From Pedobacter sp. SYSU D00535 (GTDB taxonomy: Bacteria > Bacteroidota > Bacteroidia > Sphingobacteriales > Sphingobacteriaceae), in contig NZ_JAFEWD010000002.1 of assembly GCF_017355855.1 (NCBI RefSeq), positions 732,577 through 796,576 on the forward strand: a stretch of 64,000 nucleotides of DNA, given 5' to 3'. The notes under the pieces were generated by a model. That model ran no database searches and had not been told where the DNA came from. It saw nothing but the letters and a program-made list of their open reading frames with translations. Of the stretch, positions 1 to 63,820 are shown piece after piece. The translations under genes were made by a program, and so were the position numbers. Positions within the stretch are counted from its first letter, which is position 1, and every line of letters begins with the position of its first letter.

Positions 1-2
1 TC

Positions 3-488: not shown

Positions 489-502
489 TTAAGGGATAGA
501 CT

Positions 503-1938: not shown

Positions 1939-1940
1939 CG

Positions 1941-3032: not shown

Positions 3033-3040
3033 GCGAACTT

Positions 3041-3953: not shown

Positions 3954-3958
3954 CGCTT

Positions 3959-5119: not shown

Positions 5120-5132
5120 AATAAAGATCACT

Positions 5133-5951: not shown

Positions 5952-5957
5952 ACCATT

Positions 5958-8409: not shown

Positions 8410-8432
8410 GCTTAACACTAAATTTTTACTAT

Positions 8433-9212: not shown

Positions 9213-9223
9213 GCTTTTTTGCA

Positions 9224-10691: not shown

Positions 10692-10888
10692 AACGAATCT
10701 TTCAAAAAATAGATCAGTTGCGAGCGAGCGGAAAAGCAACGCTAAATGTAAGGCAGGATTCTCCTTATTCCAAATTTAACGGAATTACCTATTCTGTTGT
10801 AGAGATCGGTAAGGCAGAACATAAATGTCGGGTGAGTTTGAAGATCGAAGGGCAGATAATTCATTTTACTCTCTGCGATATACTTTAA
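10688..10888 (+). CDS. Small protein at the end of the transfer operon
   Basis: 66 residues. It starts on an ATGA overlap with the upstream stop, a strong sign of real translation. The C-terminal two thirds read as a small beta-rich domain (GITYSVVEIG, CRVSLKIEGQIIHFTL). No family is recognised. It is the last gene before the hairpin terminator at 10915. Confidence 0.6.
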   Translation: MKRIFQKIDQLRASGKATLNVRQDSPYSKFNGITYSVVEIGKAEHKCRVSLKIEGQIIHFTLCDIL

Positions 10889-10914
10889 TTTATTTCGCTC
10901 TGTAGTCTGTTTTT

Positions 10915-10949
10915 CAGTCCTGTCGTTTTAGACAGGGCTGAGTCTTTTG
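10915..10949 (+). terminator. Hairpin terminator closing the transfer operon
   Basis: CAGTCCTGTC (10915-10924) pairs with GACAGGGCTG (10931-10940) through ten base pairs including one G-T wobble, with a six-base loop and a following T-rich stretch (AGTCTTTTG). It lies 26 nt after the last gene of the operon. Confidence 0.8.
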
Positions 10950-10993
10950 TCAAAGCACCCATTATTCATAAAAGAGTAGTAAGCTATAGGTAT

Positions 10994-11149
10994 TTAACGC
11001 CTAGTAAAACGCGAAATTTTGCTAATTAGAAAGACCCCAGCCAGCATTACAGGCAAAGCAAATATTGCTGCATGCCCCGTCATTACACTATTAAACAGAG
11101 CTCCTGTTAACGCAAAAGTCACGAACACTAAAAAAAGTAGACGTATCAT
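10994..11149 (-). CDS. 51-residue membrane protein
   Basis: The minus strand reads ATG at 11149 to TAA at 10994-10996. The product begins MIRLLFLVFVTFALTGALF and continues GHAAIFALPVMLAGVFLISK, then a basic end FTRR. That gives two hydrophobic segments, a short turn with NSVMTGH, and a positive C-terminus, the composition of a small integral membrane protein. Hydrophobic residues and small residues dominate throughout, which a random reading frame would hardly give. It lies between the tra operon terminator and the HTH gene. Function is unknown. A holin-like or TA-type small protein is possible but not shown. Confidence 0.55.
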   Translation of the reverse strand: MIRLLFLVFVTFALTGALFNSVMTGHAAIFALPVMLAGVFLISKISRFTRR

Positions 11150-11517
11150 ACTTAAATGTTTTATTAAAAATACTAAAAATTATAGTAACGCAAAGTCTAT
11201 TTGATTTTAATGTGAAAAAGACCGGAGATAAGTTCAGATATATACTTGTGTTTGCGAGAAATAATAGAATCTACTTGATAATCTTTAACTTATTTATGAT
11301 ATTGGCACTCACAAAATTGTGATAAGGTTTAGGTTAACCCGCGGTCTCATACTGCGGGTTCTTTTTTATCATCGGTAATCATACAGATTTACCACTGTTT
11401 CCGTCAAGCTAATAGTAATATTCTGAAAATTTGTAATCCGCTCCAGTATCAAAATGTTCGTACATCTTATGTGCTGAACTTTCAAATTTGATGAACTAGC
11501 GCTTTCAATAACCTAAT
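11150..11517. other. Gene-free stretch with hairpin and terminator-like signal
   Basis: No credible gene. It contains the small palindrome TCACAA-AA-TTGTGA (11309-11322) and, 13 nt further, a strong terminator-like hairpin with a T-run on the + strand (11336-11368). Since no + strand gene ends here, the pair could mark a short non-coding transcript. No promoter could be identified with confidence. Confidence 0.4.
11336..11368 (+). terminator. Orphan Rho-independent terminator
   Basis: AACCCGC (11336-11342) pairs perfectly with GCGGGTT (11354-11360), followed by CTTTTTT. It is a textbook intrinsic terminator on the + strand but lies about 450 nt after the nearest + strand gene, which already has its own terminator. 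Confidence 0.75.
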
Positions 11518-11535
11518 GTGATCCGCTGTCAATTA

Positions 11536-11895
11536 ATGAAACTCATGGAGAACCTAACATTCGAACAATTGCCTGAAGCAATTAGGGTATTGATTGAGAA
11601 AGTAAATAATATCGAAGCTCTTTTAACAGACTTGCGCCAAAAGGAAAGCGATGAAGATAAAATCTACACTGTAGCTGAAGCTGCCGCTTTTCTAAACCTT
11701 TCTATTCACACTATATATAGTAAAGTATCTCGGCAGGAAATTCCAGTTAATAAACAAGGTAAAAAACTGTACTTCTATAAATCAGAATTGATTCAGTGGA
11801 TTAGAGCCGGAAAAGTAAAAACCACTGCTGAATTGGAATTGGAAGCAAATGGATTTTTAGAAAAACGAAAAGCGTTAAGATCGTCTAGATATTAG
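11536..11895 (+). CDS. Excisionase-like helix-turn-helix protein
   Basis: 119 residues from the ATG at 11536. A GTG at 11518 and an ATG at 11545 are alternative starts. The N-terminal part is a short coiled coil (LIEKVNNIEALLTDLRQKE). The C-terminal part is a MerR/Xis-type winged HTH of the HTH_17 kind: YTVAEAAAFLNLSIHTIYSK, then KLYFYKSELIQWI. Such proteins are widespread in Bacteroidetes mobile elements, as recombination directionality or regulatory factors. No integrase is next to it, so a purely regulatory role is equally possible. Confidence 0.85.
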   Translation: MKLMENLTFEQLPEAIRVLIEKVNNIEALLTDLRQKESDEDKIYTVAEAAAFLNLSIHTIYSKVSRQEIPVNKQGKKLYFYKSELIQWIRAGKVKTTAELELEANGFLEKRKALRSSRY

Positions 11896-12000
11896 TTGTA
11901 GGTCTTTCAACATGGAAGGGCAGGGATTTTAAGTAGTTATTTTGCCCGGAAACAGCTTTAATGGTAAGAACGTTATGTCCGTTACAATTGAGTATTTCAT

Positions 12001-12552
12001 TTACAGTCTTGCCCACATTGGGTTCTGCTTCAAAACTTTTTTGTGTATAATACAACCCTCAGAGTGTGCCCCGGGCAGATAGCCAATACTCATTAAAAAC
12101 TCGTTCACAATTTCTCCACCTGTAAAGCGAAGTGTTATCCCGAACAGTTTAATCCATTCCTCTTTAGATTTCGGGTGGTGGTACTCTAGCCAATTTGCGA
12201 ACGAGCCATACTCTTTTTGCAGAACAAGTATTGTCTTTGCGTTTTCTATTGCTGCATTTACTTTCAGTTTGTTGCGTATAATTCCAGCATCAGTCAAAAG
12301 CCGTTCCCTGTCCGTTTCTGTGTAAGCAGCGATTTTTTTAATGTTGAAGTTACTGTAGGCATTTCTGAACGAGTGCTCCTTTTTCAAAATCGTTTCCCAA
12401 CTCAATCCTGCCTGATTGATCTCTAAAATTAACCTGCCAAACAATTCATTGTCATCGTAGATCGGGAAACCATAGTGGTTGTCGTGATAGTTTTTATGCA
12501 AAGTCCTTCTTTCTTCGGATTGCATATTTTCAATAGCGGTACAATAGGACAT
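12001..12552 (-). CDS. tag: DNA-3-methyladenine glycosylase I (Tag)
   Basis: 183 residues, the normal length for Tag. Family landmarks: YHDNHYGFP near 23-31, LFGRLILEINQAGLSWETIL (36-55), the LLTDAGIIRNKLKVNA segment, and near the end the zinc-site pattern HSEGC together with an N-terminal Cys at position 4. Tag removes 3-methyladenine from alkylated DNA in base-excision repair. Its start lies inside the 3' end of the upstream NTF2-like frame, which itself seems to have lost its stop. Confidence 0.92.
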   Translation of the reverse strand: MSYCTAIENMQSEERRTLHKNYHDNHYGFPIYDDNELFGRLILEINQAGLSWETILKKEHSFRNAYSNFNIKKIAAYTETDRERLLTDAGIIRNKLKVNAAIENAKTILVLQKEYGSFANWLEYHHPKSKEEWIKLFGITLRFTGGEIVNEFLMSIGYLPGAHSEGCIIHKKVLKQNPMWARL

Positions 12553-12941
12553 TCTCTATCTAATTCTGGTCGTAAGGTCTTAAAGATAAAAGAAATGGCT
12601 AAATCAGCCATTCCCATTAAGCCAGAAATTTTGAGCTTCTGTATCAAGCCTTCAATGATTTCTAAATGATAATTTAACACAATGGGGCTTCCCTCAAAAC
12701 TTCCTGAAACTTTTGCTTTTAAAATGCTCTCAGTTTCTTTTTCTTCGAAGCTTATTGGTTCCATTGTCGCCCTGTATCGGTTATTGGCATTGTCAATCCA
12801 ATGTTCTATCTCTTTTCGCCCTATATGCGTCTTGCCTTCATCAAAAACTACCGCACTTTCGGAAAAACAATTTGCGTAAGCAACGCTTTCAAAGTCGTTT
12901 TGTGCTTTTACTAAATCTGCTATTACTTTCGGTAAGTTCAT
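12429..12941 (-). CDS. NTF2/SnoaL-like protein with an abnormal C-terminal extension
   Basis: The first 106 or so residues form a SnoaL-like fold domain (AYANCFSESAVVFDEGKTH, IEHWIDNANNRYRATMEPIS, LNYHLEIIEGLIQKLKISG). Relatives of this type usually end right after the KISG/KITG strand. Here the frame reads GGC-TTA-ATG instead of GGC-TAA, and continues about 64 residues, ending in a Thr/Met-rich stretch read out of frame inside tag. A one-base T insertion near 12617-12622 would explain it. Small-molecule binding is likely for the fold, but no substrate is known. Confidence 0.65.
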   Translation of the reverse strand: MNLPKVIADLVKAQNDFESVAYANCFSESAVVFDEGKTHIGRKEIEHWIDNANNRYRATMEPISFEEKETESILKAKVSGSFEGSPIVLNYHLEIIEGLIQKLKISGLMGMADLAISFIFKTLRPELDRECPIVPLLKICNPKKEGLCIKTITTTTMVSRSTMTMNCLAG

Positions 12942-12959
12942 TCTTTTATTCCTGAAATA

Positions 12960-13751
12960 TTAAATGGTGGGTACAGTTCCACCGTCAATTATAAAATTTG
13001 TTCCTGTTAAGTAGCTGGCTCTTGGTGAAACCAGAAAGCCAACCAATTCTGCTACTTCTTCCGGTTCGGCTGGCCTGCCGTAAGGTATTCCACCCAATGC
13101 ATCCATAACACTTTGCTGAGCCTCTTCTATAGTACTGTTTGCATTTCTTGCAATCTCGCCCAACCAGGCTTTTGATGCTGTTGTATTTATCCATCCCGGC
13201 GAAACAGTGAGCACGCGCACACCTTTCGGCGTAACTTCGTTCGATAAGCTTTTACTGTAATTAATTAATCCTGCTTTTGCAGTAGCATACGGCAAGGTAG
13301 AATCGTACAAAGGCAATTTGCCCTGGATGGAAGCAATGTGAATAATCACACCACTCTTGTTATCGATCATTTGCGGTAAAAAGCCTCTGTCAAGTCGAAC
13401 CGGAGCCAGCAAATTTGCTTGCAGGGTTGACTCCCAATCGCCATCAGTTAAAGCAGCAAAGCCACCAGCAGGTGTTACAGAAGAACCCAAGTTATTTACA
13501 AGAATATCCAGTCTCCCATAAGAGGACAGAACTTCACTGATTACTTTTTGTGTTCCTTCTGCTGTACTTAGATCGGAAGGGATAAAGTGCAGACTGCCGG
13601 TTTCTTTTTCGGGTGCGTTTCTTGCTGTAATAATAACTGTTGCTCCGGCTTGTAAAAGTCTTTCTGCAATTGCTCTTCCAGCTCCTTTTGTACCTCCTGT
13701 TACCAATGCTATCTTGCCTGATAACTCATTGTTGAAATCAAATTGTTCCAT
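12960..13751 (-). CDS. SDR-family oxidoreductase
   Basis: 263 residues from the ATG at 13751. The frame is open to 13820 but the extra N-terminus is unlike an SDR. Classical short-chain dehydrogenase: cofactor motif TGGTKGAG at 18-25, NNLG in place of NNAG after the fourth strand, active-site Y155 and K159 (YATAK), and a GG(T) end typical of the family. It is an NAD(P)-dependent enzyme with unknown substrate. It is divergent from an HxlR regulator 126 nt away, an arrangement typical of regulator and target pairs responding to aldehydes or electrophiles. Confidence 0.9.
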   Translation of the reverse strand: MEQFDFNNELSGKIALVTGGTKGAGRAIAERLLQAGATVIITARNAPEKETGSLHFIPSDLSTAEGTQKVISEVLSSYGRLDILVNNLGSSVTPAGGFAALTDGDWESTLQANLLAPVRLDRGFLPQMIDNKSGVIIHIASIQGKLPLYDSTLPYATAKAGLINYSKSLSNEVTPKGVRVLTVSPGWINTTASKAWLGEIARNANSTIEEAQQSVMDALGGIPYGRPAEPEEVAELVGFLVSPRASYLTGTNFIIDGGTVPTI

Positions 13752-13877
13752 TTTGAGAATTATTATAGGCCAAAATTGAGCTATAAAAGCAGGCTCCACA
13801 AGTAGGGCATTACGATTCATATAGGGATAAATTATTCCCCTATTGCACAGCTTGGAACATACGTTTAATTTAGCAGG

Positions 13878-14237
13878 ATGTATGAAAGGAAGATACTTCC
13901 AAACTTAAATTGTGGGCTTGATCTGATAGGTGAAGTGCTTTACGGCAAATGGAAAATCCGCCTGTTATGGTTTATCAATGAAGGCAATAAACGCCCGAGT
14001 GAATTGCAACGCAAAATACCCGATGCCTCTCGCAGGGTTTTAAATATTCAATTGAAAGAATTGGAAGAACATGATCTGATTAAGAAAAAGATCTATCCGG
14101 TGGTACCGCCAAAAGTAGAATACAGACTCACTGAATTCGGTAAGACCTTAATTCCAGTCATTGCCGCCATGGGGCAGTGGGCCGATGAACATGAAGTTCA
14201 TTTACGTGATGTGATTTTGAAGCAGAACCTAGTGTAA
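13878..14237 (+). CDS. HxlR-family transcriptional regulator
   Basis: 119 residues with a winged helix: LNCGLDLIGEVLYGKWKI, FINEGNKRPSELQRKIPDAS, the LNIQLKELEEHDLI recognition and turn region, and the wing PPKVEYRLTEFGKTLIPV. The N-terminal Cys (about residue 12) is the usual redox or electrophile-sensing Cys of the family. It lies divergently from the SDR gene and probably controls it from the shared intergenic segment. Confidence 0.92.
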   Translation: MYERKILPNLNCGLDLIGEVLYGKWKIRLLWFINEGNKRPSELQRKIPDASRRVLNIQLKELEEHDLIKKKIYPVVPPKVEYRLTEFGKTLIPVIAAMGQWADEHEVHLRDVILKQNLV

Positions 14238-14605
14238 CTCATTGAATATATCTCTCAAGAATTACCTAATAGTGCTTGAATATTCTTGTTTTCATCGAGG
14301 CACAGTTTAAAAGATAACTTCTAGATAAGAATGTGTCATTCTCATTATATCTAAAAAATTCGTTTTATTACATAATCGGTGGTAGGGAAGGCTAGCCAGA
14401 AAACGTACTTAGATAGTTCAAGAAGTTGGTCTCAAAAAGGAAAAATACTATTTTTTCTGGACCTACTTCTTGAACCCTCATTTTGATTGCTCTTTTATGA
14501 AAATAGGAAGAAATGAGCCAAGCCCAGAAAGTTATGACTTTTTGGCCCTTTAAGTATTCTTGAAAATCACAATTATTTTCAACTTTAAATAATATTAAGC
14601 AGAAC
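14238..14605. other. Gene-free stretch carrying a long inverted repeat
   Basis: No supported gene. It holds the inverted repeat at 14416-14475 and an AAAGTTATGACTTTTTGG element at about 14527, a near copy of which recurs at about 16695. The short minus-strand frame here has no family features. Confidence 0.4.
14416..14475. repeat. 16-bp imperfect inverted repeat forming a long hairpin
   Basis: GTTCAAGAAGTTGGTC (14416-14431) is the complement of GACCTACTTCTTGAAC (14460-14475) with one mismatch. The spacer adds an inner GAAAAATA/TATTTTTTC pairing. It lies 130 nt before the AraC-type regulator and could be an operator, an attenuator or a relic of a small element. Confidence 0.7.
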
Positions 14606-15469
14606 ATGTCAGAGGAAATAGTTAAGTATGAATTTAAACATGGCCTACCCATCGAGTTTGAAATAGTAGATATTACTGAACTATATAGAGATAAGCGGGA
14701 GATGATTATTCGACCTCACCGAACTGGTTTCTATCATATTATATGGATTCAAAAGGGAGGTACTACCCATATAATCGACTTTCAATCTGTAACCGCCCCT
14801 GCAAATACTATTCTTTTCTTAAATAAGGATATAGTGCAGATGTTTAACCCTGAACCTTTCCAGGGACAAGCAATCTTATTTACCGAGGCTTTTTTTTCAA
14901 AATCAGATACAGACATAAAGTTTTTAAAGGAGAATGTTTTATTTAATGATCTGTTCTCCATTTCAAAGTTAGAACTTGATAGTGCTGGGGTGTCTTTTGA
15001 AGTGTTATTAACCCTTATGCAGGAGGAAGCTTTGAAAGCCGAAGATGCCTATCAATCCGGAATTCTAAAAAATTTCCTTCATAGCTTTTTGCTACTGGCT
15101 GAGCGGGAAAGAAGAAAGAATGGCTTTTTGGAAGTAAAGAAAGGAGCTGACAAAGATTATATTATTCTTTTCCGGGATCTTTTGGAGGGAAATTTCAAAC
15201 ATCAAAAGCAAGTAAACTTCTATGCCTCAAAGCTGAGCGTAACCGAAAAGCGGCTAAATCAGGCAACTTCAAAAATTTTGGGGAAGACCGTTAAACAGGT
15301 GATTGATGAGAGAGTGATGTTGGAAGCAAAGCGATTGCTGGCTCATACAACCGATAGCATAAAGGAAGTAGGCTTTACCCTTGGCTTTGAAGAGCCTACA
15401 AACTTCATAAAATATTTTAAAAAGCACAATTCCAGTACGCCCTTTGAATTCAGGGAGAACTTCTTATAG
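14606..15469 (+). CDS. AraC-family transcriptional regulator
   Basis: 287 residues. The N-terminal part has a cupin-like effector domain (HRTGFYHIIWIQKGG, followed by FLNKDIVQMFNPEP). The C-terminal 90 residues are an AraC double HTH: VNFYASKLSVTEKRLNQATS in the first helix-turn-helix, IKEVGFTLGFEEPTNFIKYF in the second, and the normal FEFREN end. The next gene, a lipoprotein with two SnoaL-like domains, starts about 90 nt downstream and is the most likely target. Confidence 0.92.
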   Translation: MSEEIVKYEFKHGLPIEFEIVDITELYRDKREMIIRPHRTGFYHIIWIQKGGTTHIIDFQSVTAPANTILFLNKDIVQMFNPEPFQGQAILFTEAFFSKSDTDIKFLKENVLFNDLFSISKLELDSAGVSFEVLLTLMQEEALKAEDAYQSGILKNFLHSFLLLAERERRKNGFLEVKKGADKDYIILFRDLLEGNFKHQKQVNFYASKLSVTEKRLNQATSKILGKTVKQVIDERVMLEAKRLLAHTTDSIKEVGFTLGFEEPTNFIKYFKKHNSSTPFEFRENFL

Positions 15470-15560
15470 TAACTGTCGCAAAAGTATCATTCAAACGGCT
15501 GTTTCTACCTTTTCCAGGGCTTCAAGTCTTCCAATCTTTGTAGCAGAAAAAAACAAGGAT

Positions 15561-16427
15561 ATGAAATATTTCAAGCAGACTTTATTAACAATAACAGCAG
15601 CAATAACATTCAGTTCTTGCTCATCACAGGAAAGAGAAATAATAAAAAAAGAAACAGTCATGAATAAGAAACAACAAGTAGTAGCTTTATTAAAAGCTAT
15701 TGAAACCGGAGCGGCAGAGCCAGTAGGTGTAATTGATGCAGCTAAATACAAACAACACAACTTAGCAATAGCAGATGGCTTAGCGGGCTTTGGTGCTGCT
15801 CTTGCTCAACTACCTAAAGGTTCCGCAAGGGTCAATACCGTAAGGGTATTTGAAGAGGGGAATTTTGTGTTCGCCCACACAGACTATAACTTCTTTGGCC
15901 CGAAAATAGGCTTTGACATCTTCCGCTTTGAGGATGGTAAAATTGTAGAGCACTGGGACAATTTACAAGAAAAACCAGTGAACGCAAATCCGAGTGGGCG
16001 CACAATGACAGATGGGCCCCAAGAAGCATCTGAACTGGAAAAGACTGAAGCAAATAAAATATTAGTCAGAGCTTTCGTAGATGATATTCTGGTTAATGGA
16101 AAAATGGAAAAACTAGCGGGATACTTCAATGGTGATAACTACATTCAGCATAACCCACAAATTGCTGATCAATTGTCAGGCCTAGGACAGGCACTCGGAG
16201 AATGGGCTAAACAGGGAATTACGATGAAATATGATACCATTCATAAAGTATTAGGAGAAGGTAACTTTGTGCTGGTAGTAAGTGAAGGTCATTTAGCTGG
16301 TAAGCTAACTTCGTTCTACGATTTATTCAGAGTAGAAAAGGGAAAGATCGCGGAACACTGGGATGTGATAGAGCCAATCGCTCCACAAAGTGAATGGAAA
16401 AATCAGAACGGCAAATTTGGTTTTTAA
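15561..16427 (+). CDS. Lipoprotein with two SnoaL-like domains
   Basis: 288 residues from the ATG at 15561, which opens a lipoprotein signal peptide (TITAAITFSSCSS). The longer frame from 15444 overlaps the regulator gene and has no signal. Two similar SnoaL-like domains follow: about 35-140 (KYKQHNLAIADGLAGFGAAL, FDIFRFEDGKIVEHWDNLQ) and about 165-285 (YIQHNPQIADQLSGLGQAL, YDLFRVEKGKIAEHWDVIE). The internal similarity shows a domain duplication. Substrate is unknown. It may deal with small organic compounds at the cell surface or in the periplasm. Confidence 0.88.
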   Translation: MKYFKQTLLTITAAITFSSCSSQEREIIKKETVMNKKQQVVALLKAIETGAAEPVGVIDAAKYKQHNLAIADGLAGFGAALAQLPKGSARVNTVRVFEEGNFVFAHTDYNFFGPKIGFDIFRFEDGKIVEHWDNLQEKPVNANPSGRTMTDGPQEASELEKTEANKILVRAFVDDILVNGKMEKLAGYFNGDNYIQHNPQIADQLSGLGQALGEWAKQGITMKYDTIHKVLGEGNFVLVVSEGHLAGKLTSFYDLFRVEKGKIAEHWDVIEPIAPQSEWKNQNGKFGF

Positions 16428-16440
16428 TTGAACATAATGA

Positions 16441-16477
16441 AAAACAGTAGAGCCCTTTCAGGGGCTTTACTGTTTTT
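16441..16477 (+). terminator. Rho-independent terminator
   Basis: AACAGTA (16443-16449) pairs with TACTGTT (16468-16474), with an inner AGCCC/GGGCT stem and a T-run at the end. It follows the SnoaL lipoprotein gene by 14 nt. Confidence 0.88.
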
Positions 16478-16707
16478 ACTAGCAGGGGAAATATGAAACC
16501 TTATAAAGTCTATGATCGAAGAGAATAAAATAAATGCAGTTGCTTTCTAGGACTTGATGTTTAACCAAAATAAGCACTAGCATTAACTCTTGAACTGGGT
16601 TATCATCTAATTAAATCAAATTTTTATGGCCTAATTAAACCCTACTTTCTGACTCCCTTTTCCAGAGGAAATAACGAAGGTTCATAAAGTTATCACTTTT
16701 TGAACTA

Positions 16708-16809
16708 ATGGACTATACTCACATCCGGAAGAGCCAGATGAGAAGTATTAAAAAGCATATTGAAGAAATTCTATTTAAGATCCGAAAGGCAGAATCTGGG
16801 AAGGGATAA
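16708..16809 (+). CDS. Possible 33-residue small protein
   Basis: The frame starts ATG at 16708 (MDYTHIRKSQ) and ends TAA at 16807-16809. It is helical and basic (MRSIKKHIEEILFKIRKAES). It may be a small protein, a remnant of a larger gene or chance. No family is recognised and no ribosome-binding site stands out. Confidence 0.25.
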   Translation: MDYTHIRKSQMRSIKKHIEEILFKIRKAESGKG

Positions 16810-16873
16810 AAGCTTAATGGTCCATTTGATCCGTGATAGTTAGCTTGTATAACTAGGTGAATAAAATAAAAAG

Positions 16874-16890
16874 GGAAGCCTTAAGCTTCC
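16874..16890. terminator. Short hairpin in the operon leader
   Basis: GGAAGC (16874-16879) pairs with GCTTCC (16885-16890) over a CTTAA loop, after an A-rich stretch and before TATCCGTTTC. It may be a weak terminator for either strand or part of an RNA leader. Confidence 0.45.
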
Positions 16891-17161
16891 TATCCGTTTC
16901 TAGTAACTGATTTTAGAACAATGCTGTGGAGATCAGATGAAGGGATATACTGAAATTTTATTTAGCTTAATTGATAATTAGTAGAGTTGACATCATGTGT
17001 AGTAAAAAAAAAATTTCCACAAGCATGAAACAGCCTATCTTTTAAGTTATATTTGAACTACCTGACCATAATTACTTACACCTCCCGTTATTTCAATTAG
17101 TTCAGGCCGATGAGTTTCACGATTGCTGCATGATTTTTCATGTGGGCTTATTAATGCTTGA

Positions 17162-20100
17162 ATGATTAGTTTATTTCCTGAAGAAAAGTTCGTTGTTAAG
17201 TTTGAATGTTCAAAAGTTATTCCTGTGCATGGTAATAAGATCGAGTATCATGTTGGCACAGAAAAAGGCATACTGAGAAAGTATACGGCTAGTGATTATA
17301 GTGGATTTGAATTTTTTTCAGATAATGGTTCCAAGTATTTCATTTCAACAGTAAAATCAAGCATTCCTAATGGATACGATGCTGCCTTCTTTGTTGATAC
17401 AACTAAATATGATAAACTAACTTACTCTGTTTTAGCTAAATGCTCAAAGAAAGCTGTATATATCAACATCCCCAAGAGTAGCGAAGTAGAGACTTCATGG
17501 GAGAACGCCTTCAAGTATAAAAAAGAGACTAGGAGTAAAGATAAATCATCGATATTACAAAAGGGGCTTAGACCCCCACAGTTAGGAGCGTTGCATGCAA
17601 TTCAAGCGCATTGGAGTATTTCTTCTAAGCCTGCTGTAGTCGTTATGCCAACAGGAACAGGCAAGACTGAGACAATGTTATGTTTAACTGTTGCTGAGAA
17701 GCTTACTGGTCTACTAGTAATCGTACCAACGGCATCATTGCGCACACAAATTTTTGATAAATTTAAAACTCTTGGAATATTAAAACAACCAGATACAGAG
17801 ATCATTTCCTTTGAAGCTAAGGCTCCTTTGGTAGGACATTTAAACACAAAAATTAAATCTGACGAAGATGCTGATCAAATTTTTAAGTCAAATGTTATAG
17901 TTTCAACCCCGCAGATTATTACAGGAATTCTTAAAGGACCTTCAAAGATTAAGAGCAAATTTTTACAATGGCTTAAGGTGCTTACTATGGATGAAGCGCA
18001 TCATAGTCAAGCACAGGAGTGGAATAAAATCAAGCAAAATGTAGAAATTTTAGAGCTCCCTGTTCTTCTCTTTACTGCAACTCCATTTAGAAACGATAAA
18101 AAAAGGCTTCAAGGTGAAATAATTTACAATTATCCATTATCACTTGCTCAAAGGGATGGGTACTACAAGAATATAAATTTTCATCACATTTTAGATTTTA
18201 ATCCTGAAACAGCTGATAAAGCAATTGCGCAGAAAGCAATTGATATTTTGATTAAGGATCGAAAAGTGTATGATCATATACTCATGGCACGTGTTGATCT
18301 TAAAGAGCGAGCTCAGATCGTGTTTGATGATATATATAGTAAGTATACAGAGTTCAATCCGATATTAATAGATAGTGATACGCCCGATAAAAAGGCGTTA
18401 TTGGAAGATATTAAAAAGGGACTTCACAAGATAATTGTGTGTGTTGACATGCTTGGAGAAGGATTTGACTTGCCTCAACTTAAAATTTGTGCATTACATG
18501 ATCTTCATAAGAACATAACAACGTCCTTTCAATTTTTCGGCAGGTTTACTCGTGACTCAAGCTTAAGGCTGGGTGAAGCATCGATAGTTGCAAATATTGC
18601 TGACCCAAACTTGAAGGGTACATTAAACAAGTTGTATCAGAAGGATTCAGACTGGAATACTATTATAAAAAGCTCAAACGAAGAGATAATTGAGTCGATA
18701 GTTAAGGAAGAGAATTTTTTTAAAAACTTCTCTCAAGCGGAAATTCCTAATAAAATCCCGTTAAGAAATATAATGCCGGCAATGAGTACGGTTGTATTTC
18801 AACTTCATGACTCTAAAATCGAATGGAACCCCAACAAGTACAAAAAGTTGTTTGATAAAGATAAGTATGAAGCAGTCTCAGTAGAACATGAAGAAGAAAA
18901 GCTGTTAATAATCATCGTTAAACAGATTGAATCTGTAAAATGGGGAAAAATTGATGATTTATTAAATTGTGCGTACCATTTGTACATCGTATACCTAAAC
19001 GAAGAACAGAAGTTGTTGTATATCAACAGTTCTAATAATGGAAGTATTCATCGAGAATTAGGCGAACTAGTTGTTGGTGAGAATATATCGTTATTTAATG
19101 AGTCTAAAATTTACCGATGTCTGGGAAATATTTTTCAAATAGAACTTTTTAATCTTGGGCTGAAATCGGTACTTGATGGTCCGATTAGTTTTACAATGTA
19201 CGCCGGAAATGGTATTGTAAATGGATTGGATGAATTAGATAATAAAACTAAATCAAGTTCCAATCTTTTTGGGGTTGGATATGAGGATGGCGAGAAAATA
19301 AGTATTGGTTGTTCATCAAAAGGGCGTGTTTGGACTAAGCTTGTAAAAAGTATACCTGATTTTTGCACGTGGTGTGATTTGCTTGGATTAAAGCTTCTCG
19401 ATGAATCTATAAATACAGATGATATATTCAGCTTCATTCAAAAGCCAGAAGTAATTACAACCTTGCCTATTGACCTTGTCCCTGTCTCAATATCTTGGAA
19501 TGAGGAACTTTATGCGTATCCGAACTTAGCACTCTACCGAAATATACCAATTGTAGACTATGGTATTTCTCTTGTATCATTTGATGCAAGTATTTTAAAC
19601 TTCTCAATTCAAATTGATGAGTTAAGAATTGAGTACAGATTGCATTTGATTGATGAAGGCAGAGGCTTTAAATATGAGCTTAAATCTACTATCCCACTAT
19701 ATATAACTCAAGGAGGCGATTTGAAATTATTGGAGGAGGTGTTTTATGAATATCCGCCAATCATTCGATTCCATGATAACTCAAAAATGCACAATAATAT
19801 ACTGCTCAGATTTAAGGGTGATTACGATATTTTTGACGTCAATAATATTATTCCTTACGATTGGAAAGGTGTTAATATTCAGCAAGAGTCTCAGAAGGAA
19901 GAAAAACGTCTAAATTCCATTCAATATTTTATTTTATTGCAGTTGAAATCAGATGAAGATTGTAAGATTGTATTTGATGATGACAGCGCTAACGAGGCAA
20001 GTGATATAGTTGCAATAAAGTATTGGGCTGATGCTGACTATAAAATTGATGTCAGTTTATATCATTGCAAATTTTCAAGCAAACCGCAAAGTGGAGCAAG

Positions 20101-20440
20101 GTTAAAAGATATTTATGAAGTAAATGGACAGGCTCAAAGAAGCTTTCATTGGCGACATCAGAGTATCGAGCTTCTTAATCACATGATCCGTCGAGAAAAT
20201 TTGAGAATTAATCAGGGCAGAAATTCTAGGTTCGAGAAGGGTACGAAAGATGACATTAAACTCTTATTAAGTATGTTATCTACCGGTTATTGCAGGATCA
20301 ACTTTAATATTTATGTAGTACAACCTGGATTAAGTAGAGAACTATTGATTAATGAACCCGAGCATCTAAAACTTTTGGGAGCGACCGATTTACTGTTAAA
20401 GAAGACGGGAAACAATTTTTACATCATTACTGATAAATAG
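17162..20440 (+). CDS. DEAH-box superfamily 2 helicase with C-terminal nuclease-like domain
   Basis: 1092 residues. The helicase core has motif I PTGTGKT (163-169), motif II DEAH (277-280), motif III TATPF (305-309) and motif VI QFFGRFTRD (457-465). These define an intact SF2 translocase related to type III restriction and DISARM-like helicases. The last 160 residues contain a conserved-looking patch: acidic NEASDIVAIKYW, then YHCKFS (H968, C969, K970), then GQAQRSFHWRHQS. The acidic-then-Lys order recalls a PD-(D/E)xK nuclease with a changed third position, but this is inference. It is the first gene of the putative defence operon; MBL starts 31 nt after its stop. The gene is visibly A+T richer than the flanks. 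Confidence 0.88.
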   Translation: MISLFPEEKFVVKFECSKVIPVHGNKIEYHVGTEKGILRKYTASDYSGFEFFSDNGSKYFISTVKSSIPNGYDAAFFVDTTKYDKLTYSVLAKCSKKAVYINIPKSSEVETSWENAFKYKKETRSKDKSSILQKGLRPPQLGALHAIQAHWSISSKPAVVVMPTGTGKTETMLCLTVAEKLTGLLVIVPTASLRTQIFDKFKTLGILKQPDTEIISFEAKAPLVGHLNTKIKSDEDADQIFKSNVIVSTPQIITGILKGPSKIKSKFLQWLKVLTMDEAHHSQAQEWNKIKQNVEILELPVLLFTATPFRNDKKRLQGEIIYNYPLSLAQRDGYYKNINFHHILDFNPETADKAIAQKAIDILIKDRKVYDHILMARVDLKERAQIVFDDIYSKYTEFNPILIDSDTPDKKALLEDIKKGLHKIIVCVDMLGEGFDLPQLKICALHDLHKNITTSFQFFGRFTRDSSLRLGEASIVANIADPNLKGTLNKLYQKDSDWNTIIKSSNEEIIESIVKEENFFKNFSQAEIPNKIPLRNIMPAMSTVVFQLHDSKIEWNPNKYKKLFDKDKYEAVSVEHEEEKLLIIIVKQIESVKWGKIDDLLNCAYHLYIVYLNEEQKLLYINSSNNGSIHRELGELVVGENISLFNESKIYRCLGNIFQIELFNLGLKSVLDGPISFTMYAGNGIVNGLDELDNKTKSSSNLFGVGYEDGEKISIGCSSKGRVWTKLVKSIPDFCTWCDLLGLKLLDESINTDDIFSFIQKPEVITTLPIDLVPVSISWNEELYAYPNLALYRNIPIVDYGISLVSFDASILNFSIQIDELRIEYRLHLIDEGRGFKYELKSTIPLYITQGGDLKLLEEVFYEYPPIIRFHDNSKMHNNILLRFKGDYDIFDVNNIIPYDWKGVNIQQESQKEEKRLNSIQYFILLQLKSDEDCKIVFDDDSANEASDIVAIKYWADADYKIDVSLYHCKFSSKPQSGARLKDIYEVNGQAQRSFHWRHQSIELLNHMIRRENLRINQGRNSRFEKGTKDDIKLLLSMLSTGYCRINFNIYVVQPGLSRELLINEPEHLKLLGATDLLLKKTGNNFYIITDK

Positions 20441-20471
20441 CTCGATCGACAGTAATCAATCAAGTAAAATC

Positions 20472-21464
20472 ATGAAGATAAAATTTTTAAAAGCAGGGAC
20501 TGGAGACTCCATATTAATTCAGCATAATAACAAAAATATATTAATTGATGGTGGTAATGAACCCAAATTTTTACTATCGCAAGTTTCTCAGATTCGGCAA
20601 CTTGAAGAAAAGTTAGACTTGCTTATTATTACGCATCATGATGATGATCATATAAGAGGAATTCTTGAACTCTTAAATCTTATTATAGATGAAGATTATG
20701 GCAAAGACTTTATCAAAGAAGTCGTTTTTAATTCTCCAAGAAAGATCATGGGAAAAATAAGTAGGGACGATTCAAATAATTTATCCTATAAACAAGCTTT
20801 CGAGGTAGAAAATCTTCTAACACGAATAGGTCGTAATTGGAAGACTTCTATTGAGTTTGGTATATGTAGAGAATTTGAGGATCTCAAGCTTACTTTTTTT
20901 GGACCTACCACGGAAATCTTAGAGAAATATTCAACTCAGAAAGGTGCATATCTAACTGGAGATTATCGTTGTGATTGGAATTCGCCAATGGCGACTTTGG
21001 AAGAGTTTATAGACGATGCAAGCTTGGATACGTCTCTCCCAAATAAAACAAGTGTCGTTGTTCTGATCGAACATGAAAATTCGCGGGTTTTGTTAACTGC
21101 AGACTCTACACCTGATCGATTGGAAGACGTTGTAAATACTTTAATTGATCCTAATACTGGAAAAGCTTTTTTTTCTGCTGTAAAATTACCTCATCATGGA
21201 AGTTACAGAAGTTTATCAAAAGGAATTCTTGAGAAAATCGATTGTAACAAGTTTATCATAAGCACCAACAGTCAGAAACATTTTCTTCCAAATAAAAGAG
21301 CCATTCTGAAGATATTAAAATTCTTGAGAAAAGATACCAAGCCTGTGGAATTACTTTTCAATTATGAGGAGGCTCTAAATGCGTTAAAAATTTCAGATTT
21401 AGAGAAAAAGAAATATAAAATCGAATTAATAAAAAACAACGAACCTTATGGAGTCGCTCTCTGA
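20472..21464 (+). CDS. ComEC/Rec2-type metallo-beta-lactamase-fold hydrolase
   Basis: 330 residues. N-terminal strand FLKAGTGDSILI and ILIDGG, then metal motif THHDDDH (T54 to H60) of the HxDxDH type seen in ComEC-like hydrolases, the LLTADS strand, and LPHHGS (L239 to S244) with the second metal His. The fold acts on phosphodiesters in many relatives, so a nuclease or nucleotide hydrolase role is plausible. It is soluble, without a signal peptide or membrane segment. Its end overlaps the protease-RT start by 17 nt, implying coupled translation. Confidence 0.9.
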   Translation: MKIKFLKAGTGDSILIQHNNKNILIDGGNEPKFLLSQVSQIRQLEEKLDLLIITHHDDDHIRGILELLNLIIDEDYGKDFIKEVVFNSPRKIMGKISRDDSNNLSYKQAFEVENLLTRIGRNWKTSIEFGICREFEDLKLTFFGPTTEILEKYSTQKGAYLTGDYRCDWNSPMATLEEFIDDASLDTSLPNKTSVVVLIEHENSRVLLTADSTPDRLEDVVNTLIDPNTGKAFFSAVKLPHHGSYRSLSKGILEKIDCNKFIISTNSQKHFLPNKRAILKILKFLRKDTKPVELLFNYEEALNALKISDLEKKKYKIELIKNNEPYGVAL

Positions 21465-23841
21465 AAAACTGAAAAGTTGCGGCATAAAAATTAAAACTAA
21501 CATTAGTGGTGTCAACGGTTACGGCTCCGGCGTATTGTATTCTACTCCTAACCGTATTTCTTACAATTATGTTCTTACCGCAAAACATTTATTTCAGGAA
21601 GATTCAAATACACCCTATGACAGTCATAAGGTAGGGAAAATCGAACTTGAATACCTGCATGATCATAAATTTCACAGGTTAGATCTTATTAAAAAGTCAG
21701 AGGTAAAGGATAGGCTAATTGTGTTTGAGGAAGATTTTGCGGTAATAAAAGTAAGCAAAAACCACAAGTTGTCTTTTAGACAAATTTTTGTGGCGGACGA
21801 GCTACAGGTTGAAGATGAAAAATTCTTTTTTTGGGCTGTTTTTTCTGCTAACGAAGGTGAGTTAAGCAAATTTAACTTGGAGAGAAATGATATAACAGCA
21901 AAACGTTTCTCTTTACATGCTAATCTTAAAGCAAGTGCCCTACCAGGAATGTCGGGCGCCGGTGTTTTCCTAAATACTAAAAGCGTGCTTTATGGGATAA
22001 TTTCTAGGTATCCCAATGAAGATTTTCAAAATGAAACCATTGATTGTACCAGAATCAAATTTGCAGATATTAATTTGCAATTAAAATCCTTAGGACTAGT
22101 TGAATTAAGTACAGAAAATTCTAGTTTTAAAAGGGAGGTTGGTAGCAATGTTGTAGATATAAATCAAGCTATAATAAATGATGCGTGTTTGAATTTAGAG
22201 CTAGCTAGGAGGCGGCTTTCAACGGATATATCAGATGACTGGTTTTACGACCCATTAAAATATATTGATTTACTTAATCAAGATTATCTTTTTGCTCAAT
22301 TGGAGCCATACTTATCCGGTGTAACGTACGAAGCTTCAGTAGCTGAAAGATTTTACGTACCGAAAAAGCAATTTACATTAAGGCAAAGTTTAAATGTACC
22401 ATTTATTGATAGAATAATGTATATGGCAGCGGTTGGGGTAATTGCAGAAAAGCTTGATTCAGCTATGATTAACTCAGTCTATTCAGCCCGATATAACAGA
22501 TTTTCCAAAAACAACTTGATCCTAAATGGAGTAGAGCAATGGAAGAAATTGCAATATCAGTTAGAAGAGACAGTACTACAAAGAAATGTAGATGGAAAAT
22601 ATGATTTTAACTGCGTTATTGAAGTTGATCTGTTGAATTTTTATGACAATATAAGCAAGAAGCTTCTTCATGAAAAAGTTTTACGAGTATGCGAGACTCA
22701 AAACGAAAAGAATGCAGCTCTCCTTCTAACCAAAATGTTAAGAAGGTTCAGTAATCAAGATGTCGGACTTCCTCAAAATAGTGATGCATCGTCATTGCTG
22801 GCCTCATTTTATCTTAATCAAGTAGATGTATTTATGCAAAGCCATGGCATAGTGTACTACAGATTCATGGACGACATCAGAATTTTTTGCAAAAATAAAT
22901 TTGAAGCCAGGCGAATACTACAAACTTTCGAATTTGAGTTGAGAAGATGCTATCTGTCTGTTAATTCACAAAAAACAAAAATTATAACGCTTATCGAGGA
23001 AAATGAAAAAGGTTGCTCTTCTGACGAGAAATTTAGAAAAGACTTTTTTGTAGAATTTAACTTCGATTTGGCCAAGATTAGCAGATATAGACAATCAGAG
23101 AATCAACAGTACCTTAATGAAGCTTTTCATGGAAGTATTAAATTGATAAAGGATAATATAAAGGTTAAAGTAGAGCGTTTCGATGATGCTCAAAAAAGAT
23201 TAAACTTTGCATTTAATACATTTCGCTTTTTGGCGATAAAAAAGTTCTCTCTTGAAAACGCTGCTTCCGATTTTCTTCCAACCATTTTGAAGGCGACCAA
23301 AGCCTTGATTAATAGACCCTGGACCACTACAGAAGTTTGCAAAGTCTTAAATTATATCTCTTCTGATGTTATTGAAACACATTTTATTGATTCTCTAAAA
23401 AGAATCGTATTGAAAGTAAGATATAACACTTATGCCTTTCAAACTTATCAAATATGGTTACTCCTTGCTAAACATAAATGTAACCATGCAGATCTCAAAG
23501 CCCATGCTATAAGACAGATTGAAAGGAATGACGACACCAATCGCTCCGTAATCGGCGCAATGATTATCTATTTATGTTCGGTAAATCCGGCCTATAGAAG
23601 AGTAGTTCTAAGAAAACTGGGCGAAGGTTTCACTCATGGGTATTTTCAAAATAGGATTGCGCTTATTGCTTTGAGACACTTTACTTCAGATCTTTTACCA
23701 TTTGACAAAATAGAAAGTACCTTAAATAAAGCTCATGCTTTTAGCCATAGGTGGAAAGAAAAGGATCTTGTTTTTGTACAGGGGGCAGAGGAATCGGAAG
23801 AGACGGAAGAAAGTGAGGCTGAACAATTATATTCTCTATAA
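21448..23841 (+). CDS. Trypsin-like protease fused to reverse transcriptase with alpha-helical tail
   Basis: 797 residues. Residues 1-200 form a trypsin-like domain with an apparent triad H47 (TAKHLF), D96 (EEDFAVI) and S169 (PGMSGAG). Residues about 240-560 form a reverse transcriptase: motif 3 EVDLLNFYDNI (392-402, catalytic D394), motif 4 GLPQNSDASS (440-449), catalytic FMDD (473-476, in place of YADD) and the QKTK loop (508-511). Residues 570-780 are helical repeats like the alpha-repeat tails of UG/Abi defence RTs, followed by an acidic end. There is no intron maturase part and no VTG motif as in retrons. Overlaps the genes on both sides, so it sits at the centre of the operon. Confidence 0.9.
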   Translation: MESLSEKLKSCGIKIKTNISGVNGYGSGVLYSTPNRISYNYVLTAKHLFQEDSNTPYDSHKVGKIELEYLHDHKFHRLDLIKKSEVKDRLIVFEEDFAVIKVSKNHKLSFRQIFVADELQVEDEKFFFWAVFSANEGELSKFNLERNDITAKRFSLHANLKASALPGMSGAGVFLNTKSVLYGIISRYPNEDFQNETIDCTRIKFADINLQLKSLGLVELSTENSSFKREVGSNVVDINQAIINDACLNLELARRRLSTDISDDWFYDPLKYIDLLNQDYLFAQLEPYLSGVTYEASVAERFYVPKKQFTLRQSLNVPFIDRIMYMAAVGVIAEKLDSAMINSVYSARYNRFSKNNLILNGVEQWKKLQYQLEETVLQRNVDGKYDFNCVIEVDLLNFYDNISKKLLHEKVLRVCETQNEKNAALLLTKMLRRFSNQDVGLPQNSDASSLLASFYLNQVDVFMQSHGIVYYRFMDDIRIFCKNKFEARRILQTFEFELRRCYLSVNSQKTKIITLIEENEKGCSSDEKFRKDFFVEFNFDLAKISRYRQSENQQYLNEAFHGSIKLIKDNIKVKVERFDDAQKRLNFAFNTFRFLAIKKFSLENAASDFLPTILKATKALINRPWTTTEVCKVLNYISSDVIETHFIDSLKRIVLKVRYNTYAFQTYQIWLLLAKHKCNHADLKAHAIRQIERNDDTNRSVIGAMIIYLCSVNPAYRRVVLRKLGEGFTHGYFQNRIALIALRHFTSDLLPFDKIESTLNKAHAFSHRWKEKDLVFVQGAEESEETEESEAEQLYSL

Positions 23842-25280
23842 TGAAAAGATTTGCGATAATTCTACTTAATAACCAATGGCATGGATTAAATATCGACGAC
23901 CATTCTGAATCAATTTTGCATCTTCCAGTTTCTCAAGATGTTACCTTAGTTTCGTCCCAAACTGCAGATGTCATTAGATCTATAAAATCGATGCAAGGCA
24001 TCAAAACTCTGCCTGATATAATTGATCTTGAATCATTTGATAAGCAAATGTCTCAAGAAGGAAAAGAGTTTCGAGCCGATAAAAAATGGAAACTTCTCTC
24101 GTTTCTAAAGCACTATAGGGTTGTTGGTCAGGATTTTAAATTAAGCTCTGCTACAATTAAAGAATGCTTGGAAGCTATTGCAAAAGTGTTTCTTCAATTG
24201 TACGAAAAGGATACGGAAGAAAAAAATAGGTTCGAGGAGATTGAGAAAAAAATAAATAAAGTTATATACAGAAGGCAGCTTGAAGGGATAAAAATTAACG
24301 CACATATAATTTTAGAATTATGCAAGAGTTTAGAGAGGGAAATCTATAGGGCAAAAAACAACTTGCAATTAAAGTATAATATCTATAATCCAGATAGTAT
24401 TGATCAACAACGGCATTATATAGAAAAATGTGGTTATAATCTCATAAAATCTACAACGTTTACTTTTAAGGCAAGAAGAGGAGATGATGAAGTTTGTAAA
24501 ATGTTTTACGAAATTTTTCGAAATCAGCAAGATCTTGATAGTTTGCTAATGATGCTATCGCATTGGGGAGGAGAGAATAGAACGAACCCAACTTATCATG
24601 GCTTCGGTACAATTACATCTCGGATAACATTAAGAGAACCTGGTCTTCAAAATCTTAGAAAGGCCAATCGGGTGGTTATTGAAGCAGATGAAGGCTATAA
24701 TTTACTTTATATTGATTATTGTCAATTTGAAGCTGGTATTCTTGCATCAATAAGCAAGGACAATAATTTGATAAACCTTTATAAAAAAGACATTTATAGG
24801 GATCTTGCAAGGGAGGTAATTGGTGACGAGACTAAACGAGGAGACGCCAAAATCATTTTCTACAGATATATCTATGGTGACAATTCATTAAGTGAACATG
24901 CGAAGGCTTATTTTCACAGATTCAAGAAGCTTGAAGTTTTTCGAGATAAGGTATATAATTCGATTCACAGCAGCAGTCGAATCGGAACAACCAAAGGAAA
25001 CTACAGATATCGAAAGAACGATGAATATACTTGGGCATTAAGTCACTTAATCCAAGGTACAGCATCATTGATTTATAAGCAGGCTGTATTACGTGTTGCG
25101 GAAGATGTTCAGGGCGCTGATTTATTAATTCCCATGCATGATGGCACCCTTTACCAAGTAGCTACTGGTTCCTATATCAATGTTAAGGAACAGATTGAAC
25201 AGATTTACAAGGATGAATTTAAGAAGATTTGCCCAGAAATAGATGTTTTAGTAAAGTGTGATGAACGTTTTCATGTATAG
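23841..25280 (+). CDS. Reduced family-A (Pol I-like) DNA polymerase
   Basis: 479 residues. The start overlaps the RT stop by one base (TAATG). The polymerase core is recognisable: ERREIYRAKN-type palm entry helix after EGIKIN, TSR (259-261) with PGLQNLRK (PNLQN equivalent, Q270 N271), motif A YIDYCQFEAGILASIS with D292, O-helix R333-x3-K337 and YGD (345-347), and motif C PMHDG (H433, D434). In cellular Pol I motif C is HDE; here the Glu is Gly435. There is no 5' nuclease and no visible DxE exonuclease site in the first 145 residues. It is about half the size of Pol I. It may make the second strand of RT-made DNA (inference). Confidence 0.88.
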   Translation: MKRFAIILLNNQWHGLNIDDHSESILHLPVSQDVTLVSSQTADVIRSIKSMQGIKTLPDIIDLESFDKQMSQEGKEFRADKKWKLLSFLKHYRVVGQDFKLSSATIKECLEAIAKVFLQLYEKDTEEKNRFEEIEKKINKVIYRRQLEGIKINAHIILELCKSLEREIYRAKNNLQLKYNIYNPDSIDQQRHYIEKCGYNLIKSTTFTFKARRGDDEVCKMFYEIFRNQQDLDSLLMMLSHWGGENRTNPTYHGFGTITSRITLREPGLQNLRKANRVVIEADEGYNLLYIDYCQFEAGILASISKDNNLINLYKKDIYRDLAREVIGDETKRGDAKIIFYRYIYGDNSLSEHAKAYFHRFKKLEVFRDKVYNSIHSSSRIGTTKGNYRYRKNDEYTWALSHLIQGTASLIYKQAVLRVAEDVQGADLLIPMHDGTLYQVATGSYINVKEQIEQIYKDEFKKICPEIDVLVKCDERFHV

Positions 25281-25622
25281 CAAATCTTAAATGCTTCTCC
25301 CGTACTTCTTTTAATGTACGACCATTTGATCGTTTTAATCAGATACTAAGAAACTACACGCTTCATTTTTGTATGCAGTAGCAAAATATTTTCAGGTTGG
25401 ACAAGATTTTGCATTGTCAGATAGATAAAACTAAATACTAGAATCTAAATGTTATTTGAAATAATTACCTTTGTAACACGCTGAAAATAACAGTATTAAT
25501 GGATTCTGTTTTTCTGTTTCATATTTGTATCTCTTGATATACATCTAGCTGACTATCAATAGTGTTTTACTTTCTGTATCGGCAAATAAAGGACAGGAAC
25601 AGATCACTCTCTCCGCCGGTTC
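25281..25622. other. A+T-rich tail after the polymerase gene
   Basis: No gene. It contains a short hairpin CGTAC-tt..at-GTACG around 25300 and a TACCTTTG sequence at 25466-25473 that matches the Bacteroidetes -7 box TAnnTTTG. No proper -33 box is seen 19-21 nt upstream. It is the second place to search for a non-coding RNA partner of the RT. Confidence 0.35.
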
Positions 25623-63618: not shown

Positions 63619-63820
63619 AAGGATTGTTTTTTTGTTTACAACGTGAGGAGCTTGAAATAGTTTAGGTCACTATTGTCTTCCTAAATTCATCTGATTGATA
63701 CCTACTAATGTTATTACTACGTTTGATCCGGAGGGCTGTGTGAGAAAGGCACCTTCGGTTGCCCTCATAGCCGGGCAGGCCTAGTCCTTTTGTCTTGACA
63801 CAAAAGGACCCAAAAGTCAA

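What the first reader, a model, noticed from the sequence alone, without database searches (positions are those of the whole stretch)
17162..25280. Four-gene operon: helicase, MBL hydrolase, protease-reverse transcriptase fusion, family-A DNA polymerase
Seen: four + strand genes with a 31-nt gap and then overlaps of 17 nt and 1 nt, all visibly A+T richer than their flanks, next to a conjugative-element region. Known: RTs of the UG/Abi class act in defence (DRT systems), and MBL plus trypsin-like components occur together in AVAST type I. Inference: this is one defence system in which an RT and a dedicated DNA polymerase make DNA and a protease, hydrolase and helicase act as sensor or effector. 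I cannot place this gene set in any named system from memory.
Basis: partly seen in the sequence, partly recalled or inferred. Interest (0 to 1): 0.96.

Follow-up and report, generated by a model that had tools for sequence, protein, structure and literature searches.

The report
Reverse transcriptase guarding a locked nuclease
A mobile DNA element carries a reverse transcriptase fused to a protease, next to its own DNA polymerase and a nuclease-like protein that is predicted to stay locked until the protease cuts it; the set likely stops phages by destroying DNA, and it belongs to a catalogued family for which we found no published test.

Summary
Three (MBL hydrolase, trypsin-RT fusion, family-A polymerase) match PADLOC's RTasMBL, RT_UG9_large and RTasPolA: a catalogued kind of defence-associated reverse transcriptase, untested as far as the papers searched show. 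The MBL gene adjoins the RT in 16 of 17 other genome loci and the polymerase in 17 of 17. The helicase is not part of the set: adjacent in 0 of the 15 loci where this can be seen, and present without UG9 elsewhere. MBL and protease are the published nuclease-protease pair: catalytic residues are invariant, and the MBL model has exactly two disordered loops, each with a conserved Leu before Ser/Thr. The RT model aligns through its helical domain with DRT4/DRT6, and the protein ends in a conserved disordered tail ([YF]-S-x in 119 of 120 listed proteins), the region where DRT3b, DRT9 and DRT10 prime DNA. Proposed mechanism: self-primed DNA on that tail, made duplex by the polymerase, controls a protease that unlocks the nuclease. 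A protease-free form (RT plus polymerase only) also exists. The operon sits at the right end of a 76.9-kb ICE in mnmE.

The parts
20472..21464 (+). MBL-fold hydrolase (330 aa), predicted gated pro-nuclease; metal-ligand positions H55 D57 D59 H60 D211 H241/H242; disordered loops at residues 98-105 and 159-162
   Evidence: PADLOC RTasMBL E 5.6e-131; these residues 31 of 31 in A2, window included; AlphaFold2 pLDDT 88.9 with only those two segments under 50
20745..20792 (+). gate loop 1 of the MBL (residues 92-107), candidate protease site Leu104-Ser105
   Evidence: pLDDT under 50 at 98-105; L104 30 of 31, S105 31 of 31; being cut is inferred
20934..20978 (+). gate loop 2 of the MBL (residues 155-169), candidate protease site Leu161-Thr/Ser162
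   Evidence: pLDDT under 50 at 159-162; L161 31 of 31, residue 162 T or S in 27 of 31; being cut is inferred
21448..23841 (+). trypsin-like protease (about 1-225) fused to a UG9 reverse transcriptase (about 240-530) and a helix-only domain (about 530-775)
   Evidence: PADLOC RT_UG9_large E 0 over 1-797; H47 D96 S169 and D394 D475 D476 34 of 34 in A1, window included; model pLDDT 86.4
23821..23838 (+). conserved C-terminal tail EQLYSL of the RT (residues 792-797), candidate DNA-priming tail with Ser796
   Evidence: [YF]-S-x in 119 of 120 listed proteins, the window's own included; only segment of the model with pLDDT under 50 is 779-797; priming is inferred
23841..25280 (+). family-A DNA polymerase (479 aa), active-site residues D292 E297 R333 K337 Y341 Y345 H433 D434
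   Evidence: PADLOC RTasPolA E 5.2e-144; residues 16 of 16 in A3, window and one near-duplicate included; best solved relatives are DNA polymerase I
17162..20440 (+). SF2 helicase (ResIII/DEAD, 1092 aa), 31 nt upstream; judged a neighbour, not a member of the conserved set
   Evidence: adjacent to the trio in 0 of 15 other loci; found without UG9 elsewhere
25572..25588 (+). attR: right-hand 17-bp direct repeat of the mnmE 3' end, right boundary of the ICE
   Evidence: same 17 bp at contig C12 681213-681229 at the end of mnmE
1..25571 (.). right part of the 76,935-bp integrative conjugative element that carries the operon

Best explanation
This is a UG9-type defence-associated reverse transcriptase operon at the right end of a conjugative element, in which the RT is predicted to build DNA on its own C-terminal serine, the partner polymerase would copy it into duplex, and the fused protease would then likely cut two gate loops in the neighbouring MBL protein and so release a DNA-degrading nuclease. 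Shown here: the three genes, their invariant catalytic residues, the two disordered loops in the MBL model, an RT model that aligns with DRT4/DRT6 through the helical domain, the conserved C-terminal tail, the co-conservation of the trio and the existence of a protease-free two-gene form. Inferred: that the tail primes DNA; that the polymerase makes a second strand; that DNA synthesis, or its disturbance by phage, oligomerises or frees the protease; that Leu104 and Leu161 are the cut sites; that the freed nuclease kills or arrests the infected cell. The helicase upstream is taken as a neighbour that may share the transcript.
Confidence: 0.55

Rival explanations
1. A true four-gene system: the SF2 helicase is the phage-DNA sensor and drives the protease, as HamB does for the MBL/protease-HamA form of Hachiman.
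For: 31-nt gap and same strand; in L023 and L028 the trio lies in a type I restriction operon whose HsdR is also an SF2 motor; HamMAB couples a helicase to the same pair.
Against: Helicase adjacent to the trio in 0 of 15 other loci; a 34% homologue lies about 5 kb upstream in L014 and L015 only. In 395 genomes of the phylum 7 have the helicase (E 1e-40) and 2 a UG9-like RT (E 1e-60); only the window's own genome is in both lists. Longest-contig lengths: RT and MBL lists share 56, RT and helicase 0, MBL and helicase 0 (a proxy). No HamB match for the window's helicase at E 0.1.
Confidence: 0.12
2. RNA-templated DRT: an unrecognised ncRNA (for example in the 734-nt gap before the helicase) is copied by the RT, and PolA makes the cDNA double-stranded.
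For: The gap is long and folds better than 20 of 20 shuffles (z -2.17); DRT2, DRT9 and DRT10 use ncRNAs (passages); DRT9 is rank 9 in Foldseek.
Against: No Rfam match at gathering level. Among flanks of 14 loci plus the window only three matches passed E 0.01: the shared hsdS end of L023/L028 and two short ones (21 and 32 nt, E 0.006 and 0.002); none downstream. In L023 and L028 the gene before the MBL ends 9-10 nt away and the gene after PolA starts within 18 nt or overlaps. DRT4, DRT6 and UG15 are the VIA rows that align through the helical domain.
Confidence: 0.2
3. The conserved C-terminal tail is not a primer but a product-like inhibitor that sits in the protease's active site, released when the RT changes shape.
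For: Of 119 tails the residue after the Ser is the last one in 118: I 66, L 46, V 5, P 1; one ends -IT. This fits the Ile specificity reported for the HamA-fused protease.
Against: Six protease-free UG9-small RTs also end in an acidic tail with a terminal Ser (3) or a penultimate Tyr (3), which fits priming rather than protease inhibition.
Confidence: 0.15
4. Not antiphage: the polymerase set serves the ICE itself (its replication, or exclusion of rival elements).
For: It is ICE cargo; the UG9-small matches on plasmids are all on conjugative (4) or mobilizable (1) ones, three of the five being copies in one species.
Against: L023 and L028 have the trio inside restriction operons and L014 beside an nSTAND gene; the nuclease-protease pair is an immune effector in the systems tested.
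Confidence: 0.1

Closest known systems
UG9 DRT (PADLOC RT_UG9_large / RT_UG9_small, RTasMBL, RTasPolA)
   Same: Three of the four genes match (near) full length; myRT reports the polymerase domain PRK14975 with 94% of UG9 RTs (PMC8934634 Table 4, passage)
   Different: The helicase is extra. No UG9 experiment was found in the papers searched
Nuclease-protease pairs of Hachiman (HamMAB) and AVAST type I (PMC12799240)
   Same: [quoted passage not shown] two disordered loops in the MBL model; catalytic triad kept
   Different: Partner is an RT with its own polymerase, not HamA or a STAND ATPase; conserved loop residues are Leu, not Ile
DRT4 / DRT6 / AbiK (template-free RTs with a helical domain)
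   Same: DRT6, DRT4 and UG15 align over about 450 residues, RT plus helical domain; AbiK is Foldseek rank 2
   Different: N-terminal protease, conserved C-terminal tail, polymerase neighbour
DRT3 (two RTs make the two strands of a duplex)
   Same: Two polymerases in one system; a conserved hydroxyl residue at the end of a C-terminal tail (Y666 of DRT3b, passages)
   Different: Second polymerase here is family A, no ncRNA found, nuclease-like effector present

Membership tests
UG9 DRT | Full-length match to the UG9 RT model, better than to other UG groups | tested here: met
   1053 bits RT_UG9_large; next RT_UG9_small 251 and RT_UG32 160
UG9 DRT | Adjacent family-A polymerase with intact catalytic residues | tested here: met
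   RTasPolA E 5.2e-144; catalytic residues 16 of 16
UG9 DRT | Antiphage activity dependent on the RT | not testable with these tools
   needs plating assays
Class 1 (template-free) UG RT | RT fused to an alpha-helical repeat domain | tested here: met
   helices only from residue 530 on; DRT6, DRT4 and UG15 align through to 776-778
Class 1 (template-free) UG RT | Template-independent, protein-primed synthesis | not testable with these tools
   tail conservation is suggestive only
Nuclease-protease pair (PMC12799240) | MBL gene directly upstream of an N-terminal trypsin-like protease fusion | tested here: met
Nuclease-protease pair (PMC12799240) | Two disordered insertions in the MBL that appear to block the active site | tested here: inconclusive
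   two segments with pLDDT under 50; residues 69-186 have no counterpart in the profile match to ComEC 9ic4; whether they block the active site was not measured
Nuclease-protease pair (PMC12799240) | Conserved cleavage residue in each loop (Ile in HamM/Avs1a, Gly in CanC) | tested here: inconclusive
   conserved residues are Leu104 (30 of 31) and Leu161 (31 of 31); positions 92 and 180 are Ile in 22 of 31 each; cutting untested
AVAST type I | STAND ATPase fused to the protease | tested here: not met
   no STAND domain in the four proteins; NCBI's Avs1a model matched at 147 bits against a cut-off of 420
Lamassu | SMC-like LmuB ATPase in the operon | tested here: not met
   none among the four proteins; the MBL and the protease do match LmuA models (E 4.8e-65 and 7.8e-28)
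Hachiman | HamA domain fused to the protease, with a HamB helicase | tested here: not met
   the protease is fused to an RT, no HamA domain in Pfam; no HamB among the 15 PADLOC matches of the helicase

The most novel reading that the evidence does not exclude
UG9-large is a DNA-gated zymogen: the RT grows random DNA on its own C-terminal Ser796, PolA makes it duplex, and that tethered DNA is itself the switch. The tail ends one residue beyond the Ser in Ile or Leu, like the cut ends its protease would make, so it could sit in the protease as a product mimic until DNA priming, or loss of the DNA during infection, moves it and the protease opens the MBL nuclease. As far as the papers read here go, it would be the first immune circuit to join an RT, a private family-A polymerase and a proteolytic nuclease cascade.
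Probability: 0.12. Interest if true: 0.9.

Novelty: new member of a known kind. Interest (0 to 1): 0.56.

Why it matters
UG9 is a catalogued RT family for which the searches here found no published mechanism. This work turns it into point-testable predictions (primer Ser796, gate sites Leu104 and Leu161, a second-strand polymerase) and joins two recent lines of work: DRTs that write DNA, and proteases that unlock pro-nucleases. The protease-free form lets the DNA-making core be tested apart from the nuclease-protease pair.

Tried and rejected
Four-gene unit: rejected on co-occurrence. The contig-length comparison is a proxy: lengths were copied by hand from the best-120 lists (120, 120 and 119 of 120 entries; the window's own left out of the overlaps). 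Linked ncRNA: Rfam gathering scan, flank comparison and folding of the gap gave little support; a diverged RNA is not excluded. The first UG9 scan of genome contigs, with one protein, confirmed none of 22 stretches; the alignment scan confirmed 17 of 58. UG9 in viral contigs: 95 stretches, none confirmed; phage records: none at E 1e-10. Avs1a family search: 75 of 148 genomes at E 0.001, none over the cut-off, loci not read further. Island at mnmE in L018: mnmE lies upstream, but no exact repeat of its end of 11 nt or more was found. Sigma-70 scan: 41 sites against 38.0 expected, terminators 8 against 5.2, uninformative. No HamM or Avs1a structure among the sequence matches. Exonuclease in the PolA N-terminal part: a D62-x-E64 pair is kept (D in 15, E in 16 of 16); other motifs were not tested. 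Foldseek on the MBL model: best rows a phosphorylcholine esterase and ComEC, TM-scores 0.51-0.61.

Alignment rows were my choice: A1 holds 34 (window plus 33 of the 120 listed, which listed 120 of 222 matches), A2 31 (window, 22 of the 120 listed, 8 loci), A3 16 (window and 15 of 17 loci; L022 and L027 left out as interrupted). L015, L022, L025 and L027 were left out of the 14 trios. Neighbours were scanned with Pfam in 4 of 15 loci only (L013, L014, L023, L028); the rest were judged by ORF starts.

Full report
What is there. The four ORFs are exactly as described. Pfam gives ResIII/DEAD/Helicase_C, Lactamase_B, Trypsin_2 (27.4 bits, just under its cut-off of 27.6) with RVT_1, and DNA_pol_A. 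PADLOC names three of them outright: RTasMBL (E 5.6e-131), RT_UG9_large (E 0, residues 1-797) and RTasPolA (E 5.2e-144), all filed under DRT; the helicase has only partial helicase-domain matches, best PbeA at 1.5e-11.

The unit is three genes. An alignment-based scan of species genomes found 17 loci. The MBL gene lies beside the RT in 16 of 17 (in L025 the contig starts inside the RT gene) and PolA in 17 of 17; in L022 the RT and PolA frames and in L027 the PolA frame are interrupted. Among 14 trios measured, the window included, MBL and RT always overlap (11-74 nt) and RT and PolA are spaced -56 to +5 nt; protein distances correlate at r 0.85 (MBL-RT), 0.85 (RT-PolA) and 0.67 (MBL-PolA), 0 of 2000 permutations as high (shared host history not controlled). 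The helicase is adjacent to the trio in none of the 15 loci with upstream DNA; L014 and L015, which are near-copies, have a 34% homologue about 5 kb upstream. In 395 genomes of the phylum the helicase occurs in 7 at E 1e-40 and a UG9-like RT in 2 at E 1e-60, and only the window's own genome is in both lists; five of the six other helicase loci were fetched and, by their ORF starts, have differing neighbours.

A simpler form exists. PADLOC confirms RT_UG9_small for the three of them tested (L030, L053, L055). On a tree of the RT part the 14 large rows form one group (94/99) and the 4 small rows in the tree another (92/92), both just under the starred level, with two very long outgroup branches. 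This agrees with PMC12799240, which says that the DRT variants with the pair emerged only once (Results read in full). Whether the pair was gained, or lost in the small form, is not settled.

The tail. After a hypervariable acidic linker (mean majority share 0.39 at 780-791) the last six residues are conserved (0.86). Of the 120 listed proteins, the window's own among them, 119 end in [Y/F]-S-x: Tyr 112, Phe 7; the exception (P0111, 612 aa) ends differently. The six UG9-small RTs end in -DELPEFIS (3) or -DEVS[EG]YD (3). Hydroxyl residues near the C terminus prime DNA in DRT9 (Y496/Y498), DRT10 (S456, or Y444) and DRT3b (Y666) (passages: PMC12483538, PMC12632851, PMC13174585); DRT1 uses Ser402 (PMC13275509, passage). 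As the Ser, not the Tyr, is kept in all 119, Ser796 is the better candidate.

The polymerase. The family-A active-site residues are kept in 16 of 16; the best solved relatives are DNA polymerase I large fragments. Tyr341 stands where Klenow has Phe762 (numbering recalled). DRT3 makes a duplex from two RTs, and DRT7 is said to have preprint evidence for duplex-like DNA made by an RT-primase-polymerase fusion (PMC13213688, first of two parts read). A private PolA doing the second strand is my inference.

Proposed working order: RT oligomer self-primes DNA on its tail; PolA copies it; phage infection changes that DNA or its synthesis; protease domains are brought together or freed; MBL loops are cut; DNA is destroyed. 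Only the parts, not the order, are evidenced here.

Context. The operon ends 291 nt before attR of a 76,935-bp element between 17-bp repeats of the mnmE 3' end, with a tyrosine recombinase 0.9 kb inside the left end, a relaxase, TraG, TraM and a coupling protein. The assembly holds a second copy on contig C11, identical over the 33.9 kb compared, of which 24.0 kb are ICE, followed by an unoccupied mnmE site and joined to it at a point that is not att; I read this as assembly overlap or a mixed population, not as proof of two copies. In L023 and L028, two of the four loci whose neighbours were scanned with Pfam, the trio lies inside a type I restriction operon, hsdM-hsdS-[trio]-hsdR, with a 189-aa ORF before hsdR in L023.

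Literature limits. Searches that held the term UG9 were 34 papers, 20 listed; the two RT papers are surveys, read in passages; 0 papers; DRT searches listed no paper on UG9 by title or abstract, and 'UG9' occurs 0 times in the papers. Most subscription papers are not held, and Mestre et al. 2022 (the UG/Abi survey) could not be read.

Noticed in passing
window 25572-25588; contig C12 681213-681229; contig C11 77014-83249: 76.9-kb ICE in the 3' end of mnmE; a second assembled copy on C11 is followed by an unoccupied mnmE site, so occupied and empty sites are both in the assembly.
   Followed up: partly
L023:4774-16200 and L028:6209-17008: The UG9 trio is embedded in a type I restriction operon between hsdS and hsdR (2 of the 4 loci scanned with Pfam, of 15), a placement that (from recall) PrrC-type guards also use.
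   Followed up: partly
L022:9992-12393 and 12397-13823; L027:3424-4759: In L022 (Niastella) both the RT and the PolA frames are interrupted, and in L027 the PolA match lies in two pieces: broken copies.
   Followed up: no
L013:13832-16252: An 806-aa ORF overlaps the PolA end by 8 nt and has no Pfam or PADLOC match at E 1e-5; a possible further partner in that locus.
   Followed up: partly
L018:4299-5768: mnmE (by its FCIGK end) again lies upstream of a UG9 trio in a Chitinophagaceae MAG, but no exact repeat of its 3' end of 11 nt or more was found.
   Followed up: partly
L040 (G022:C93:121001-121480): A 371-aa MBL frame in a genome of the same family scores higher on the Avs1a model (107 bits) than the window's MBL (86 bits in the same search); its neighbours were not read.
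   Followed up: no
window 12001-12941, - strand: Two overlapping ORFs, one resembling a DNA glycosylase (Tag-like, recalled), overlap by 124 nt; a frame problem or fusion is possible.
   Followed up: no
window about 63760-64000: The last 240 bases or so belong to a short repeat with many copies in the same genome (54 matches to the 4-kb query, itself included, most of them to this end).
   Followed up: no
contig C12 674155-675357 (L037): Array of about 181-nt direct repeats upstream of mnmE, at the point where contig C11 departs from C12.
   Followed up: no
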